64,000 bases of DNA from Petasospora fabianii (taxonomy: Eukaryota > Ascomycota > Saccharomycetes > Phaffomycetales > Wickerhamomycetaceae), in assembly GCA_022641835.1 (NCBI GenBank), contig CP048721.1, positions 62,001 to 126,000 on the forward strand. Reading direction: 5' to 3'. Position 1 is the stretch's first letter, and each line of letters begins with the position of its first letter. The position numbers and the translations under genes were made by a program. The notes under the pieces were generated by a model. The model had not been told where the DNA came from and did not search any database. It saw nothing but the letters and a program-made list of their open reading frames with translations. Positions 49,683 through 59,619 of the stretch are shown piece by piece.

Positions 49683-51164
49683 TCATTCCAAATGGGCAAG
49701 TAGCTCCCTCACCATTGACAAAGTTTCGAGCGAATCCTCCTTGTTTTCATCTTGAGCGTTATCATAGTTAAACACTAATTCAGCCTCATATGATCTCAAT
49801 ATCACGTTGATCTTCTTGATATCGACTCCATACGATACAATCTCAGCTTTCAATTCATCATCCTCAATCAATAGCCAAGCAAATAACAATACAACTTTTT
49901 GAATGAGATCTAAACCAGCTTCAATTTTTTCCAAGTATAAGTCATCAAAGTCGTATGTCCCATTAACCCCCAGAACAGCTGAATCTGTCTTTAAAGTTGT
50001 CTTCAAGATGGTTTTCACGCCCTTCCCTTCCTTTGAAACAAGTCTGTTAATCACCCTAACTCTTTCATCGGATCCAAAGGGTAAAAACACCATTAGTCCA
50101 ACAAACACCTGAATCACCGATTTTTCATTCCCTGAATTATAAAATTTGAAAACACTCTTCAAGAAATGATTACTCCGTACAATATCAAGAGATAAATCGA
50201 CATTACTTCTCTTGTTTAAAGAGTCCATAGCAAGTCCAGCAAGCTTCAAGAAAGTACGGAACCCCCATTCACCAGTCTTCTTCATCAAAAGCACAAACAG
50301 TTCAAACCCTTCATAGTGAACAATAGAGTCATATCCATTATGATCTGTAAGACAAGACCCAAGAGAATCCACAATGTCTTCTATTGGCTCAAGATCAGGT
50401 GTATAGTCTCGACTAATCATCTTGGAGAGTGTCACTAGTAAGATTTCAATTGCAAAGGGGAATTTTGTGCAAAAAGTAGATATATCGATGGATACAAGAC
50501 GATATATCACATCGTAAAGTGTTTCAATCATGTCTGGCGTGGATGTTTGTTCATTGCTTCGTGAAAGGAAGAGGAAGACGTCTTCTGTTAGTTGTAATTG
50601 TACTTGCTCCTTGTATGACTCGTATTCACAAAGTTCTGCAATCATTTGTAACGACAATTTTTGGATTGAGGGAGATTTCAAGAGGAGACTTTGAAGGATC
50701 TTTGTTGAAAGAAGCCATGAGATGAATGATTCCGAGAAAGGTTCGTATTCATGATCGATAAAATCTGAGAGTGTAATGGTACTTTGCTCCACAATGTCCT
50801 CGTTTGGATGGCTCAATAGATCTGGGAGCACTTTGATCAGCAATTGTGGATCTTCAAGAAGTGAAGGGTTCTCGGTAATGTTCGAAAGCTCCTTGACTTG
50901 AGCATACAGTGCCGTTTCAGTATCGAGGAACCTGAGTGGTTCATTGGGATACTTGTCCCTCTGGGTAGAGTTCTCAGCCAGTGTTGATGTGATCGTTCCC
51001 ACAATCTTGCTGAGCCATGGGAAGTCGATCGTCACCTGCTCCTTTTCAATATCTGGGATGTCAGGAATGTCAAGCCTGCGTCGTTTAAGCTGAGAAGCGA
51101 CCATGTTAGTATCTAAATGACGAGCAATTGAAGAGTTGATAGACAATGGACTCACGTCTCCCAT
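49683..51164 (-). CDS. Beta-catenin-like protein 1 (CTNNBL1) homologue
   Basis: Armadillo-type protein of 493 residues. The N-terminus carries a basic KRRR signal followed by an acidic D/E/I stretch, as in CTNNBL1. The region DKYPNEPLRFLDTETAL, then an HPNEDI repeat and the ...SIVHYEGFELFVLLMKKTGEWGF region, match the family. In animals CTNNBL1 belongs to the Prp19/CDC5L spliceosome complex and binds nuclear localisation signals. Human CTNNBL1 has 563 residues. It is head-to-head with PRP19, its expected complex partner. S. cerevisiae has no orthologue that I know of. Confidence 0.75.
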   Translation of the reverse strand: MGDVSPLSINSSIARHLDTNMVASQLKRRRLDIPDIPDIEKEQVTIDFPWLSKIVGTITSTLAENSTQRDKYPNEPLRFLDTETALYAQVKELSNITENPSLLEDPQLLIKVLPDLLSHPNEDIVEQSTITLSDFIDHEYEPFSESFISWLLSTKILQSLLLKSPSIQKLSLQMIAELCEYESYKEQVQLQLTEDVFLFLSRSNEQTSTPDMIETLYDVIYRLVSIDISTFCTKFPFAIEILLVTLSKMISRDYTPDLEPIEDIVDSLGSCLTDHNGYDSIVHYEGFELFVLLMKKTGEWGFRTFLKLAGLAMDSLNKRSNVDLSLDIVRSNHFLKSVFKFYNSGNEKSVIQVFVGLMVFLPFGSDERVRVINRLVSKEGKGVKTILKTTLKTDSAVLGVNGTYDFDDLYLEKIEAGLDLIQKVVLLFAWLLIEDDELKAEIVSYGVDIKKINVILRSYEAELVFNYDNAQDENKEDSLETLSMVRELLAHLE

Positions 51165-51484: not shown

Positions 51485-53029
51485 ATGCAGTGTGCAAGTG
51501 AGTACCATACGATTTACCCAAGAATCTGTGAAAGTCTGACAACTAACACCCGAGTTATAGTCTCAGGAGAACCTCCGAAGGAACCAGTCGTTTCGCCAAA
51601 GAGCGGTGCCCTGTTTGAAAGATCCCTTGTTGAAGCATACATAGCTGAGCATCATAAGGATCCAATCACATCAGATGAGCTCTCAGTGGAAGATCTGATA
51701 CCGCTAAGGGCAACTGCATATCAGCAACCGCGCAATGCTACACTAAACTCTGTGCCGTCGCTTCTATCAGCTCTACAAAATGAATGGGATGCCACTGCTC
51801 TTGAACTGTTCCAATTGAGGAAACAGCTTGATGACACGAGAAAAGAATTGTCTACTGCCCTGTATCACCATGATGCAGCTGTAAGAGTCGCTGCAAGAGC
51901 AATCAAGGAGCGAGATGAGGCACGTAAGGCTCTCCAGGAGCTCACAACATCGATCAGTGGAGGAGAACCAATCACTACAACAGATATACAAGACGATTCG
52001 AACGATATTCAGATGGGAAGTGCGAGTGTTCCAGAGGAGATATCATCAGCAATTGCCACAGCCAATGCCGAGCTTCTGGCCATCCACAAGTCTCAGAAGT
52101 CCAAGCCAAATGTTGCCGTTGATGCTCCACTCTCATCACTTGAAGAGTCAAAGATCTCTACAAAGGCACCATTCAAGAAAATCTCCACTACAAGTATAAC
52201 ATCTGATAATAAGATTTACGTCACATCAAGCACAGGTATTACCTCTGTCTATGATCCACAATCACAGACATACACCAAGGACGAGTCCATTACTAAAAAC
52301 ACCAAAATCACACACATCACTAAAGTGGCCACAACCACAATCATTGGTTTCTCGAATGGTGAAATAACATGTGGTGATTCCCTGATTAAGGCACACAAGT
52401 CCCCAATTGTTGCTCTGTGTGCACACCCATCCATCCCATACCTTGCTGTCTCGTTAGACAAGTCTGGAAGTCTGGCACTTATCAACACAGACTCAGCAGA
52501 GATCATCTTTACAACTACACTACCAGGTCCTGTTGTCACTGCTGACATCCATGGAGACGGTGCGTTGGTCGCTGCTGCTGGTGTCGATGGTACCATCTCT
52601 GTTATTGATTTGAAAACTGGTGACATTGCCGCATCGTTTGCCAATGAAGGCCAAAATTCTACAATGACCACAATCAGGTTCGGTAGTAATGGTTACTGGC
52701 TATTTGGTGGATATCAGGCTGGTGATGAGAGTTACGTGCTAGTGTGGGACTTGAGAAAGGGCTCCTCATCCAAGATCCCATTGAACTACGGCGTTGATAA
52801 GATCTTGCTAGACAAGTCTTCGCAGATTTGTATTGTCCTTTCTGGTGGGAACATTGAGATCTCTCAATTCACCAAGGCCTCCAAGAGCTGGACCACTAAA
52901 GCTGCGCTAGATGTGGATGTTGATGAGGACATCGTTGACGGTGTCGTTGTCGATGATTCAAAACCAAACGTATTGGAGCTTGCTGTGGTTACATTATCGT
53001 CATCTGTGAAAGCTCTGACAATTTCATGA
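51485..53029 (+). CDS. PRP19: Spliceosomal E3 ubiquitin ligase Prp19 (one intron)
   Basis: U-box ubiquitin ligase, core of the NineTeen complex that activates the spliceosome. Exon 1 is 51485-51497 and exon 2 is 51561-53029, giving 493 residues. Splicing produces MQCAISGEPPKEPVVSPKSG, which matches the strongly conserved Prp19 start MFCAISGEPP. Unspliced reading inserts 21 foreign residues. U-box at about 1-56, tetramerising coiled coil about 65-140, linker, then WD40 beta-propeller from about 190 to the end. The intron length is a multiple of three with no stop. Neighbour genes are the CTNNBL1-like gene and UTP7. Confidence 0.92.
   Translation: MQCASEYHTIYPRICESLTTNTRVIVSGEPPKEPVVSPKSGALFERSLVEAYIAEHHKDPITSDELSVEDLIPLRATAYQQPRNATLNSVPSLLSALQNEWDATALELFQLRKQLDDTRKELSTALYHHDAAVRVAARAIKERDEARKALQELTTSISGGEPITTTDIQDDSNDIQMGSASVPEEISSAIATANAELLAIHKSQKSKPNVAVDAPLSSLEESKISTKAPFKKISTTSITSDNKIYVTSSTGITSVYDPQSQTYTKDESITKNTKITHITKVATTTIIGFSNGEITCGDSLIKAHKSPIVALCAHPSIPYLAVSLDKSGSLALINTDSAEIIFTTTLPGPVVTADIHGDGALVAAAGVDGTISVIDLKTGDIAASFANEGQNSTMTTIRFGSNGYWLFGGYQAGDESYVLVWDLRKGSSSKIPLNYGVDKILLDKSSQICIVLSGGNIEISQFTKASKSWTTKAALDVDVDEDIVDGVVVDDSKPNVLELAVVTLSSSVKALTIS
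51498..51560 (+). other. PRP19 intron, 63 bases
   Basis: Donor GTGAGT at 51498, branch site AACTAAC at 51541-51547 and acceptor TTATAG ending at 51560. Phase is such that ATGCAGTGTGCAA joins TCTCAGG to restore the conserved CAISGEPP reading. No in-frame stop inside. Confidence 0.9.
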
Positions 53030-55044: not shown

Positions 55045-58000
55045 TCACATATCAATATCACCCTTGAAGCTGAGAATGTCATTCCATCTTGCACCATTGA
55101 TTTCGGTTTTAACAGCAGTAGCATTTATATCCTCAGCATCAAAATTCTTTTCACCTTTCTTCGATGCAACAAGAACCAATCCTCTGGATCTGATGCTCTC
55201 AACCAAGTCAGGCACGAGGACAAGTAACTCGGACGGCACGATGATACCTAGTAAATTATTGAGTGTGGCAAATCTCGTAGCTTCCATGATCGAGTGTGTT
55301 GTTGGGTCTTCAGACTTGACAACATCGATTGGGAATCCATTAGCAGAACTGATTTCGAACTTATCATCGGCAAAGTGAATACCACTGACGTTAAAGAAGA
55401 CTGGGTAGTTTGGTTGTTTCCAGTTGAGGATGGAGCACACTGACTGATTGTTAGACGAGAAGACGATTGACCTGCTGCATTTGCTGTTTTTAGCACGTAG
55501 TTGCCTAACGTGATCAAAGACGGTGGTCAACATGGCATCGACAAAGGTGTCGAGATCAGCACTATCTGGAAGTGTAATTGGGATTTCCTTGACCTCGGCC
55601 TCAGTTGGGTAGAGGACTTCAACATTGAGATTGACATAGTCTGGGATGTTCTTAAGGAGATCTTCAAAGAGGATGCAGCTGTTGTCCAAGATGTGATTGA
55701 GACCCTTGTAGAACTCAGACTTGGTAGTCATTTCAGGGAAGACAATGCTGTCAATGTCATACTGCGTCAATGACTTCAGTTGCTGAACAGAAAGTTGAGA
55801 GAGTGGAATTTGAGTTCCAAGAACATTCAGGTACCAAGCTGGACAGACAACTGGTGTACCATCAGAGAGCAATGTGACGTTGATCTTGACGTAGTCTCCA
55901 GAAAGGGACGATGACGTGACGAAACTGAGCACGGAATTTTGGACACCAGAGTTGTTACCGCTCGTAGACTTCCAATATGTGTCATATTTGGAGATTTCCA
56001 ACGGCTTTCCTGAGTATGGGTGGATCACCTGGAACTGGAATTTCAACTCACCAACGTTCTTCAGTCTTCCATCAAAGAGAGGTAACACCACTGAGTTGTT
56101 GAGACCGTCATTAGTGACATCAGTAAAGACATTTGACAGGGCAGAAGTCTTGGCAATGAGCTTGGTACCAAACGAGGGGAAAATCTCGAAGTCGATAGAG
56201 AACTGGTCCAAGGAATCAACCTGAAATGCAACAGTGCTCTCACCTTCAGTCACGGGGAGCAAGATGTTTCGTGGAACAACATCACTGATCTTAGAACTTA
56301 GTACGACTCTTCCTGGTAATGATGTGAGGACCTCCTCCTGATTCAGTAGGATGGAGTCCTTACCAAGGGCAAAGCGCAGTTGAAGGAAAATCATCTTTTC
56401 CAAGAAGTTATGACCGTATCTTCTCAATGGGATGATAGGTGGAGGAAGAGATAGGTCCGGGATCATGTCAATATTGAAGGTTTCAGCGTCTAATGAGAAG
56501 CTTGGTGGAGCAACACTTGGGGACAACGAGATGGTTCCATTGTTGAACTTCAGTGGAGATAGCAGATTTTTGGAACCCTTTACCTGTTGGATAGCATCAA
56601 TCAACACGTTCAAGACGTTGACATGACCTTCCCAAGAGGCATAGTACAATGGTGTGTTGTTTTCTTCATCCTTGATATCAATCTTGGCGCCAGCCTTAAT
56701 GAGAGCATCGGTAGTTCTTGGGTGACCCTCACTTGCAGAGTAGAAAATTGGTGGCCACTTGTTGAACCCATCAACATCGTTAGGGTCTGCACCATTTTGA
56801 GTCAATAGAGGAACAAGCTTGAAGCTTCCAGTCTTGGCAACAACATGAAGTGGTAGAAGACCTTCAGCATCTTTCTGGAACTCTTTCACTTTTGGCTGTT
56901 TCAAGAGCAACTCAGCAGCCTCATAATTACCCGACTTGCAAGCAACGTTCAATGGAAGGTATTGTGGGTGATCCTCAGAGTTGACAGGAGCAGCATCCGC
57001 ACCAAGCTCGAGAAGGACTTTCACGGTTTCGAGATGGTTTCTTTCAATGGCCAAGAGCAATGGAGACATCGAATCGTAGTCCAAGTCGTTGAGATGTTCG
57101 AGGACACCTTTGCAAGAGCAGAGCAATCTCACCAAACCGTTTTTGCCCAACTCAGAGGCATAATGTAATGGAGTTCTTCCACTGATATCTTTTGAGAATA
57201 GAGTTGTCCCCTCTTTAAGAGCAAGCTCAATGATGAAACCTCTACTCTCGTTAGGGTTGCAGCATGCTTCATGTATCACCGTTCTTCGGGATAAATCGTC
57301 GGCGTAGGACAACGCGACTAAGCCAGAAGAAACATCATAGAACTGTTGTAGAATTTGATCAGGGATCTTTGTGGTGATCGCAAGAAAGAATATTTTTGTA
57401 AGCTTGAACTCCGCATTTGGAGCCTTCTTGACTCTCTCAACGAATGGAACAACGAGAGCAGTGGCAGTGGAGGAATATGCAACATTGAGAAATTCATTGT
57501 AAACATCATCAACTTCCGTGTCGTCCACGATGGACTTGCTGGAAACACCATCAGTCGTGCCTGCCTCGGAAGGATGTCTCGCTGTAGTATTTTGGTCATT
57601 GGAGAGTTGGAATTTGGACATATCGGTTGATGTGATGGAGCTGCCTCTTTTGGTCGAGTCGTTCTCATAGTCAAATCTGACAACGAGTTCACCTTCGGCA
57701 TTAGCGTCAAGTTCTACCAAAGAGTTGGCACAGAGATCACTTAGTTGAGAGATTTCAGCCCTGTTGAAGACAGGTTGCACGGAGACAGCCTTGGAGAGAT
57801 AGAGCTCTTTCGTATGGGATTTGGATCTCTTATCCCACTTCTTCAACACCTTGGAGAAACCAGTTTGATTTAGCTCGACAAACTGTTCAAGTCGTTCCAA
57901 ATCTCTAGAAAATCTCTTAAATCCATCGTAGAGTTTGATGTATGCAATGGAGGTTTTTGAACCTAGTCTCTGTTTGGCAATTGCATCATTTTTCTTACGA

Positions 58001-58398
58001 ACCAAGATGTCCAATCTGACTTTGAGATCAGCCTCTTTCTCGAGGTAGAATGCATTAACCTTTTCCAATTCTCTTTCCAGCCTGAAAAAGAATGAGGCCT
58101 TGTTCTCCTGTAGAAGTCTTTCGACATCGACCACTGTAGCACTCCCCTGCGGTACAGCAAGTGCCTTGATGAGCTAGGAAGGAGGGTCTGTTAGTACTTG
58201 TCATCACAACAAACTGGGACCTGGGAACAATGGAAGACATACCTTCTTGAGAGCCTTGTAATTGATGAAGTGACCAACATATTCAGGAAGCTCTAGTTGC
58301 CTGGACTCCAAATATTTACCAAATTTCCTGGACGAAGGTTGTTAGTTGCTTGTTTGAATAGAGGGATGCTTGACATGTCGGAGAGAGTTGACTCACAT
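55045..58398 (-). CDS. PHO81: CDK inhibitor of the phosphate pathway (two introns, split start codon)
   Basis: Phosphate-sensing inhibitor of the Pho80-Pho85 kinase. Exons: 58398-58397 (AT), 58327-58243, 58173-55045, giving 1071 residues. The spliced start is MKFGKYLESRQLELPEYVGH, joined through INYKALKK to LIKALAVPQGS, the classic SPX opening. Then come the rest of the SPX domain (to about 190), ankyrin repeats (about 400-590), and a C-terminal glycerophosphodiesterase-like domain (about 700-1060). S. cerevisiae Pho81 has 1178 residues. Without intron 1 no in-frame ATG exists: a TAA precedes the SPX frame. Two CACGTG boxes lie upstream. Confidence 0.92.
58174..58242 (-). other. PHO81 intron 2, 69 bases
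   Basis: Donor GTATGT (58242-58237), perfect branch site TACTAAC near 58190-58196 and acceptor CTAG ending at 58174. It joins YKALKK to LIKALAVPQGS of the SPX domain. Confidence 0.93.
58328..58396 (-). other. PHO81 intron 1, 69 bases, inside the start codon
   Basis: Donor GTGAGT (58396-58391), branch site AACTAAC near 58346-58352 and acceptor CCAG ending at 58328. It separates AT (58398-58397) from G (58327). The unspliced RNA reads ATG TGA at this point. Confidence 0.85.
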
Positions 58399-58636
58399 CT
58401 TGGATGGGGAACGTGGGGCCAGTCAATTCGGTTCAAGGAAACACAAGCAACACTTGAAAGTGGCTTTGGAGATGTGTTTATACCTAGGTGGAGAGTTTGG
58501 TGAACCTTATGAGGTGGTGCAAAGGAGCCCGTTGGTGAAGGCTGAGTGAAAGATGAGCGGTGCAATTATTCAGTTGATCACCCCGTGTGCTTCGGCAAAC
58601 GGAAATGTCGTAAGGGTGATTTGTACGGCAACGAAT

Positions 58637-58642
58637 CACGTG
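58637..58642. promoter_or_regulatory. Pho4-type site CACGTG (proximal)
   Basis: Palindromic CACGTG in the PHO81 promoter; this is the Pho4 core site. Confidence 0.55.
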
Positions 58643-58765
58643 TAGAGAGAAACGGTGAAGATGGAAGAATGCTTCCTGCGCTGGAGCGAGAGCGTGGGCT
58701 GGACAGAAGGAGAGTGCCAGCCTGGAGCATGGGGGTCCTCTGCAGACTTCAATTTCATGGGCAGA

Positions 58766-58771
58766 CACGTG
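58766..58771. promoter_or_regulatory. Pho4-type site CACGTG (distal)
   Basis: Second CACGTG, followed by GCGCGCGG, in the PHO81 promoter. Confidence 0.55.
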
Positions 58772-58917
58772 CGCGCGGTCTTTGGAGATAAGACGTCAGG
58801 GCAGGCATTGATTCTGAAAGTTACGCAGGGATCGGCGAGTGGCGTAAAACAGGGTCCTATCACACCGGTAGGCTACGACAACAATCTCTTTCGGATCTAA
58901 ACTGAGCTCATCGGAGC

Positions 58918-59619
58918 CTAGTCCCTGTAAAGTTTTGTGCTAGTGGTTGTGTGTGAGGTGTGGTGTGTCTGGAGAAAGTGTGCAACCTCGCGCAAGTTCT
59001 TGTAGCGGGAAGTGAACTTCACAATGTCCTCATCGCACTCCAATACGAACGAGTCTTGAAGTTGGAGAAGCTCAGCCAACAAGGGAACCAAGCGCTCTGT
59101 AGTGATTGTGGTGGGTTGTCTCTTTTTATAAGCCTGAATGAGCTTTACTAAGCTTCTGTGCTTTCCAAAGAGGTTGGAGACAGATGAGGCTGCGTCCTTG
59201 ATAGGAACACCGGCAAAGGTCTTCGAGGCTGGGCTCATTGGCGACAATTGAACCCTATAGACAAACATGCTCTCCTTGGTATATCTGTAGATCCTAATCA
59301 TTGGTGTTAGTGAGCTTAAGCTGACTACTCGGTACGATTAGCTGGTGGTGTCGGCATACTCGGCGCTAAGTTTGAAGAAGGATTTGTCCCTCAAGGGCGT
59401 TTCAGGGGAGAGAATTATAGTGACGAGCTGAGTGTCAATGCCGTTATATTCGGCCAATACCAAGTCGGTTCTCCTTTGTACATCTCTCAAGAGAGCTGGG
59501 CAGCCGCTGCTGATGTTCTGCTCTTCGTTGTCGTCAGAAAAGTTGACGACAAAGTGGAGTAGAACGGAGCCATTTACGGCGGTTCGTGTGTGAGACTCGG
59601 AAACCACGGTAAACACCAT
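58918..59619 (-). CDS. Unrecognised two-exon gene
   Basis: Two small frames, 59619-59338 and 59301-58918, become one gene when an intron at 59359-59294 is removed. Exons 59619-59360 and 59293-58918 give 211 residues. The join reads ...FFKLSAE then IYRYTKESMFVYRVQLSP. The first half is strand-rich (MVFTVVSES, VLLHFVVNFSDD, LVTIILSPET). The second half is helical and basic (LFGKHRSLVKLIQAYKKRQ, LLAELLQLQDSFVLE). No signal peptide or membrane segment. I do not recognise the family. If the intron is wrong, these would be two unrelated short frames. Confidence 0.65.
59294..59359 (-). other. Intron of the unrecognised gene, 66 bases
   Basis: Donor GTATGC (59359-59354), branch site CACTAAC near 59305-59311 and acceptor TTAG ending at 59294. 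The intron contains a TAA that would stop exon 1. Frame is kept across the junction (GA^G). Confidence 0.75.

What the first reader, a model, noticed from the sequence alone, without database searches (positions are those of the whole stretch)
58327..58398. PHO81 start codon is built only by splicing (AT^G), and the unspliced RNA reads AUG-UGA
Intron 1 has a good donor (GTGAGT), branch site (AACTAAC) and acceptor (CAG). Removing it joins AT to G and gives M-KFGKYLESRQ, the expected first residues of an SPX protein. Without splicing the same AUG is followed at once by a stop, and a TAA precedes the SPX frame, so no Pho81 could be made. This would place the phosphate-pathway inhibitor under an all-or-none splicing switch, with the retained form acting as a minimal start-stop. 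The sequence facts are direct; a regulatory role is inference.
Basis: partly seen in the sequence, partly recalled or inferred. Interest (0 to 1): 0.78.

Follow-up and report, generated by a model that had tools for sequence, protein, structure and literature searches.

The report
Intron splitting a yeast start codon
In the yeast Cyberlindnera fabianii an ordinary-looking short intron falls inside the start codon of the phosphate-pathway gene PHO81; the eye-catching 'start-stop' in the unspliced RNA follows automatically from where the intron sits, and nothing found here points to a regulatory switch.

Summary
The sequence facts hold. On the minus strand of C. fabianii, AT (58398-58397) is followed by a 69-nt intron (58396-58328: GTGAGT, AACTAAC, CAG) and then G (58327). 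Splicing gives MKFGKYLESRQ. With a second intron (58242-58174) the protein has 1071 aa and Pho81's SPX, ankyrin, C2_GDE1 and GDPD-like parts. A public C. fabianii record differs by two substitutions only, so this start is already annotated. The interpretation does not hold as stated. AUG is present before and after splicing, because introns begin with G. A phase-2 GTGAGT intron always reads NNG-UGA when retained; this was described for 209 Yarrowia introns (PMC2911113), and a GDE1-like paralogue here does it at codon 6. The intron is unstructured and resembles two other start-proximal introns in the window. Yarrowia genes with start-codon introns vary least in expression (PMC13309789). Predicted proteins suggest the disrupted start is shared in part of the family: 11 of 12 relatives at 66-73% identity lack M before KFGK, against 5 of 107 more distant ones. 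Splicing and phosphate response were not testable.

The parts
58397..58398 (-). coding part of exon 1: AT, the first two bases of the PHO81 start codon
   Evidence: joined protein start matches homologues
58328..58396 (-). intron 1, 69 nt, phase 2, GTGAGT ... AACTAAC ... CAG
58341..58347 (-). branch site AACTAAC; its TAA lies in the KFGK frame
58243..58327 (-). exon 2: G of the start codon plus KFGKYLESRQLELPEYVGHFINYKALKK
58174..58242 (-). intron 2, 69 nt, GTATGT ... GTACTAAC ... TAG
55045..58173 (-). exon 3: rest of Pho81 (SPX, ankyrin repeats, C2_GDE1, GDPD-like)
58477..58482 (-). TATA-like TATAAA, 84 bases before the start codon; no ATG in between
   Evidence: function inferred
58637..58642 (.). 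CACGTG, candidate Pho4-type site
   Evidence: function inferred from the consensus
58766..58771 (.). CACGTG, candidate Pho4-type site
   Evidence: function inferred from the consensus

Best explanation
This is an ordinary, presumably constitutive, start-proximal spliceosomal intron that happens to fall between the second and third bases of the PHO81 start codon. Splicing swaps the intron's G for the exon's G after AU and places the SPX reading frame behind the AUG. A retained copy has AUG-UGA because any phase-2 intron with a GTGAGT donor does, so it would make no Pho81 and probably be degraded. Phosphate control of the gene most likely acts through transcription. Shown: sequence, frames, homology, public annotation. 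Inferred: that splicing occurs, is efficient and is unregulated; decay of the retained form; Pho4 control.
For: Coordinates and frames. SPX/Ank/C2_GDE1/GDPD architecture. A public C. fabianii protein of 1071 aa with the same start and two substitutions elsewhere. Same-window introns in PRP19 (51498, 63 nt) and in the 51164 gene (51155, 66 nt) have the same donor, an ACTAAC branch site and similar length. The GDE1-like paralogue has a 72-nt phase-2 GTGAGT intron at codon 6 and reads MKFGKT* if retained. Yarrowia: 209 phase-2 introns with this donor give an immediate stop and 47 genes have a one-base first coding exon (PMC2911113); the class of 42 start-codon introns lies in genes with the highest expression and lowest variability (PMC13309789). 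Intron 1 folds no better than shuffles (z = +1.28; 187 of 200 shuffles fold at least as well). C. fabianii is intron-rich for a budding yeast, 767 genes (PMC4125763).
Against: No RNA data: splicing is predicted only, and the public annotation was itself made by annotation transfer from other yeasts (PMC4125763). An AT^G split looks rare in this genome: of 29 rows (28 distinct starts) matching ATGTNNGT-N(20-50)-CTAAC-N(3-33)-YAGG, only PHO81 gives a convincing start, and the reversed control pattern gave 47 matches, so neither chance position nor a special role is decided by it. Two start-proximal introns in the window have no in-frame stop, so an immediate stop is not universal among its neighbours. 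The apparent retention of the disrupted start in relatives could mean selection rather than accident.
Confidence: 0.85

Rival explanations
1. Regulated splicing switch: retention of intron 1 in high phosphate silences Pho81, and splicing in low phosphate releases it, with AUG-UGA as a start-stop that blocks scanning ribosomes.
For: Retained RNA cannot encode Pho81; the AUG has A at -3; the disrupted start appears shared by several relatives.
Against: The start-stop is automatic for a GTGAGT donor in phase 2. Intron unstructured, no Rfam match, and splice motifs look strong. Genes with start-codon introns in Yarrowia vary least in expression. Of 14 held papers with PHO81, splicing, intron and phosphate starvation, the 12 listed show no title or abstract start about PHO81 splicing in a yeast (listing only).
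Confidence: 0.05
2. Intron-mediated enhancement: a cap-proximal intron in the start codon is kept because it raises or steadies PHO81 expression.
For: Introns placed just after the start codon raise expression in Yarrowia reporters (PMC13309789, passages); start-proximal introns recur in this window and in the GDE1-like paralogue.
Against: No expression data here; one relative (P0002, 71% identity) seems to have an uninterrupted start. The passages read say it remains unclear whether splicing is necessary for such enhancement.
Confidence: 0.25
3. The true start lies in another upstream exon, and AT^G is a coincidence.
For: C. jadinii and Wickerhamomyces mucosus records have other residues and exons before KFGK.
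Against: AT^G restores exactly the conserved MKFGK start. The only upstream alternative found in C. fabianii has a poor donor. The extra N-terminal part of the W. mucosus record is homologous to the product of the gene just upstream of PHO81 here (32% over 199 residues, E 2e-27), so that model looks like a fusion made by a gene caller.
Confidence: 0.03

Closest known systems
Start-codon introns of Yarrowia lipolytica (PMC13309789; PMC2911113)
   Same: Introns with the 5' splice site after A, T or G of the start codon; GTGAGT donor and ACTAAC branch motif predominate
   Different: Different species and genes; the parts read give no separate count of the AT^G class; shorter intron here (69 nt against a median of 196 over all introns)
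Phase-2 GTGAGT introns that create an immediate stop when retained (PMC2911113, section 7)
   Same: The donor's TGA is read in frame whatever the intron length
   Different: Here the split codon is the start codon, so the retained product is a bare start-stop
Phase-0 introns right after the start codon (PMC1626468, passages)
   Same: Strong bias of introns towards the start codon
   Different: Introns that disrupt the start codon are called relatively rare there
Fungal PHO81 / nuc-2
   Same: Domain order and MKFGKYL start
   Different: Two introns in the SPX-coding 5' end in C. fabianii

Membership tests
PHO81 (SPX-ankyrin CDK inhibitor) | SPX, ankyrin repeats, C2_GDE1 and GDPD-like region in this order | tested here: met
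PHO81 (SPX-ankyrin CDK inhibitor) | Close homologues that bear a name are called Pho81, CDK inhibitor PHO81 or nuc-2, and a separate GDE1-like gene exists in the genome | tested here: met
   several close homologues are unnamed or called hypothetical or ankyrin; the paralogue is called GDE1-like by SPX plus Ank in the part held and by a recalled N-terminus, its GDPD part was not examined
PHO81 (SPX-ankyrin CDK inhibitor) | Inhibits Pho80-Pho85 in low phosphate | not testable with these tools
   -
U2-type spliceosomal intron | GT donor, ACTAAC-like branch site, YAG acceptor, restored reading frame | tested here: met
U2-type spliceosomal intron | Junction seen in RNA | not testable with these tools
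   no transcriptome held
Start-codon intron | 5' splice site after A, T or G of the start codon | tested here: met
Regulated intron-retention switch | Retained fraction depends on the signal | not testable with these tools
Regulated intron-retention switch | Recognisable element in the intron (structure or known RNA family); supportive rather than strictly required | tested here: not met

The most novel reading that the evidence does not exclude
A start codon split by an intron in PHO81 is kept across part of the Cyberlindnera-Wickerhamomyces group because splicing of that intron tunes Pho81 supply with phosphate or growth state.
Probability: 0.05. Interest if true: 0.6.

Novelty: new member of a known kind. 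Interest (0 to 1): 0.2.

Why it matters
Mostly practical: split start codons may make gene callers lose or misplace the N-terminus (11 of 12 close relatives listed here lack M before KFGK), and the SPX domain's conserved first residues are then missing from public proteins. It also shows how a start-stop can be a by-product of intron phase rather than a regulatory device.

Tried and rejected
A structured or known RNA element in the intron: no (intron z = +1.28, intron with flanks z = +0.70; no match above gathering score). Another upstream start exon: one poor candidate only. More AT^G starts genome-wide: a GTRAGT pattern gave 13 rows against 11 in the reversed control, a wider GTNNGT pattern 29 rows (28 distinct starts) against 47, so the patterns themselves are not enriched and say little. 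In one search each row was tested for an open, coding-like frame behind the joined ATG. Long frames: L027 (480 aa, Anp1 family), L028 (353 aa) and L029 (486 aa). L027 has an upstream in-frame ATG, read by eye in the sequence, so its AT^G is probably an internal Met codon; L028 looks by eye like an actin-related protein cut internally (recalled, not searched); L029 has a possible upstream coding exon and no Pfam match above cut-off. The remaining rows give frames of 47 aa or less; those above 30 aa had negative coding scores except PHO81, but a gene with a very short second exon could be missed. The patterns cover only introns up to about 100 nt with CTAAC and a GTNNGT donor. DNA of relatives: viral contigs gave no relative, and genome contigs (prokaryotes) gave one match to the ankyrin region in a Treponema MAG. 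The alternative acceptor CAG at 58303-58301, in frame, would give M-QLELPEY; weak, because the first AG after the branch site is the predicted one. The scan has strict filters: it missed PHO81 intron 2 and the probable intron of the gene upstream. Paper searches: (9 of 10 used). Solved structures: 426 sequences matched, and the 60 shown all match the ankyrin region.

Full report
What is there. The window is from Cyberlindnera fabianii: the encoded Pho81 matches CYFA0S01e19174g1_1 of that species over 1071 aa, with two substitutions, and the genome held has 12.3 Mb in 16 contigs. On the minus strand, AT (58398-58397) is followed by a 69-nt intron (58396-58328) with GTGAGT, AACTAAC and CAG, then G (58327). 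Joined, this reads MKFGKYLESRQLELPEY. A second 69-nt intron lies at 58242-58174. The spliced protein has SPX, ankyrin repeats, a C2_GDE1 domain and a GDPD-like region.

What the start-stop means. An intron begins with G, so an AT^G intron leaves AUG in the unspliced RNA at the same place. With GTGAGT or GTAAGT the next codon is then UGA or UAA, whatever the gene. This is a known consequence: in Yarrowia lipolytica 209 of 1083 introns are in phase 2 with this donor and give an immediate in-frame stop, and the branch site CTAAC is a second common source of stops (PMC2911113, section 7 read). The GDE1-like SPX-ankyrin paralogue in this genome has the same kind of intron at codon 6 (72 nt, GTGAGT, phase 2) and reads MKFGKT* when retained. 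So AUG-UGA is not evidence of design.

How special the position is. Introns crowd around the start codon in yeasts: Yarrowia has 47 genes whose first coding exon is the single A of ATG (PMC2911113, passages), and 42 introns after A, T or G of the start codon (PMC13309789, section 26 read). In a broader set, introns that disrupt the start codon are called relatively rare (PMC1626468, passages). In C. fabianii, 767 genes have introns (PMC4125763, whole text). In this window a strict automatic scan printed three introns, all start-proximal and all with GTGAGT: PRP19, the 51164 gene and PHO81; it missed PHO81 intron 2 and a probable intron of the upstream gene. The PRP19 and 51164 introns have no in-frame stop, so the immediate stop in PHO81 comes from its phase, not from a rule for all such introns. 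Genome-wide, of 29 rows matching an AT^G-type pattern only PHO81 gives a convincing split start; the reversed control gave 47, so the pattern alone is not informative.

Relatives. No DNA of related yeasts could be searched. Predicted proteins give an indirect test. Of 1441 homologues found, 120 are listed; 13 of these have 66-100% identity. Leaving out C. fabianii itself, 11 of 12 have no M before KFGK, or lack that segment; one (P0002) starts MKFGK. Of the other 107 (60% identity or less), 102 have M-K-[FY]-G-K and 5 do not (Fisher p about 5e-11, without correction for relatedness). In C. jadinii, W. ciferrii and W. mucosus the residue before KFGK is G, R and L, each of which can be coded by a triplet ending in G; but 13 of 20 amino acids can, so this is weak support. 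The W. mucosus record carries in front a homologue of the gene that lies just upstream of PHO81 here (32% over 199 residues), so its N-terminus looks like a gene-caller fusion. The pattern suggests that a disrupted start is shared by much of this group, though incomplete contigs, a gene caller's choice or other introns could contribute.

How it most likely works. A normal, probably efficient intron is removed and the ribosome starts at the joined AUG. A retained copy makes no Pho81. Intron 1 is unstructured (z = +1.28; 187 of 200 shuffles fold at least as well) and no RNA family matches 58100-58950 above its gathering score. Two CACGTG sites lie 373 and 244 bases before the start codon, and a TATAAA 84 bases before it; 0.10 CACGTG are expected in 520 bases from the 12 in the window, P about 0.004, region chosen after looking. 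Pho4 binds CACGTG or CACGTT (PMC10437122, passages). Control through transcription is therefore the simpler expectation. In Yarrowia, genes with start-codon introns vary least in expression, which is the opposite of a switch.

Limits. No RNA data were available. The public annotation was made by transfer from other yeasts. Whether the intron enhances expression, or is retained in some condition, is open. The searches for print on PHO81 introns and splicing listed 16 of 16 papers and 12 of 14, mostly on plants, and none whose title or abstract start describes PHO81 splicing in a yeast; they were seen as listings only, and most subscription papers are not held.

Noticed in passing
window 51498-51560 (+) and 51090-51155 (-): PRP19 and the gene divergent from it (51164, minus strand) each have a short GTGAGT intron near the start, 63 and 66 nt, with no in-frame stop, so plain ORF calls read through them; in PRP19, itself a splicing factor by family, retention would add 21 residues near the N-terminus, before or within the U-box.
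   Followed up: partly
window 59294-59359 (-): The gene upstream of PHO81 (59619 to about 58918, minus strand) probably has a 66-nt intron (GTATGC donor, ACTAAC, TAG); spliced it encodes 211 aa, homologous to the N-terminal part of the 1282-aa W. mucosus record P0007.
   Followed up: partly
L008 1408-1496 (G000:C13:128453-128541): GDE1-like SPX-ankyrin gene with a phase-2 GTGAGT intron in codon 6.
   Followed up: yes
window 58301-58303 (-): A CAG in exon 2, 27 nt after the predicted acceptor and in the same phase, followed by G; its use would give a Pho81 starting M-QLELPEY without the KFGKYLESR segment.
   Followed up: no
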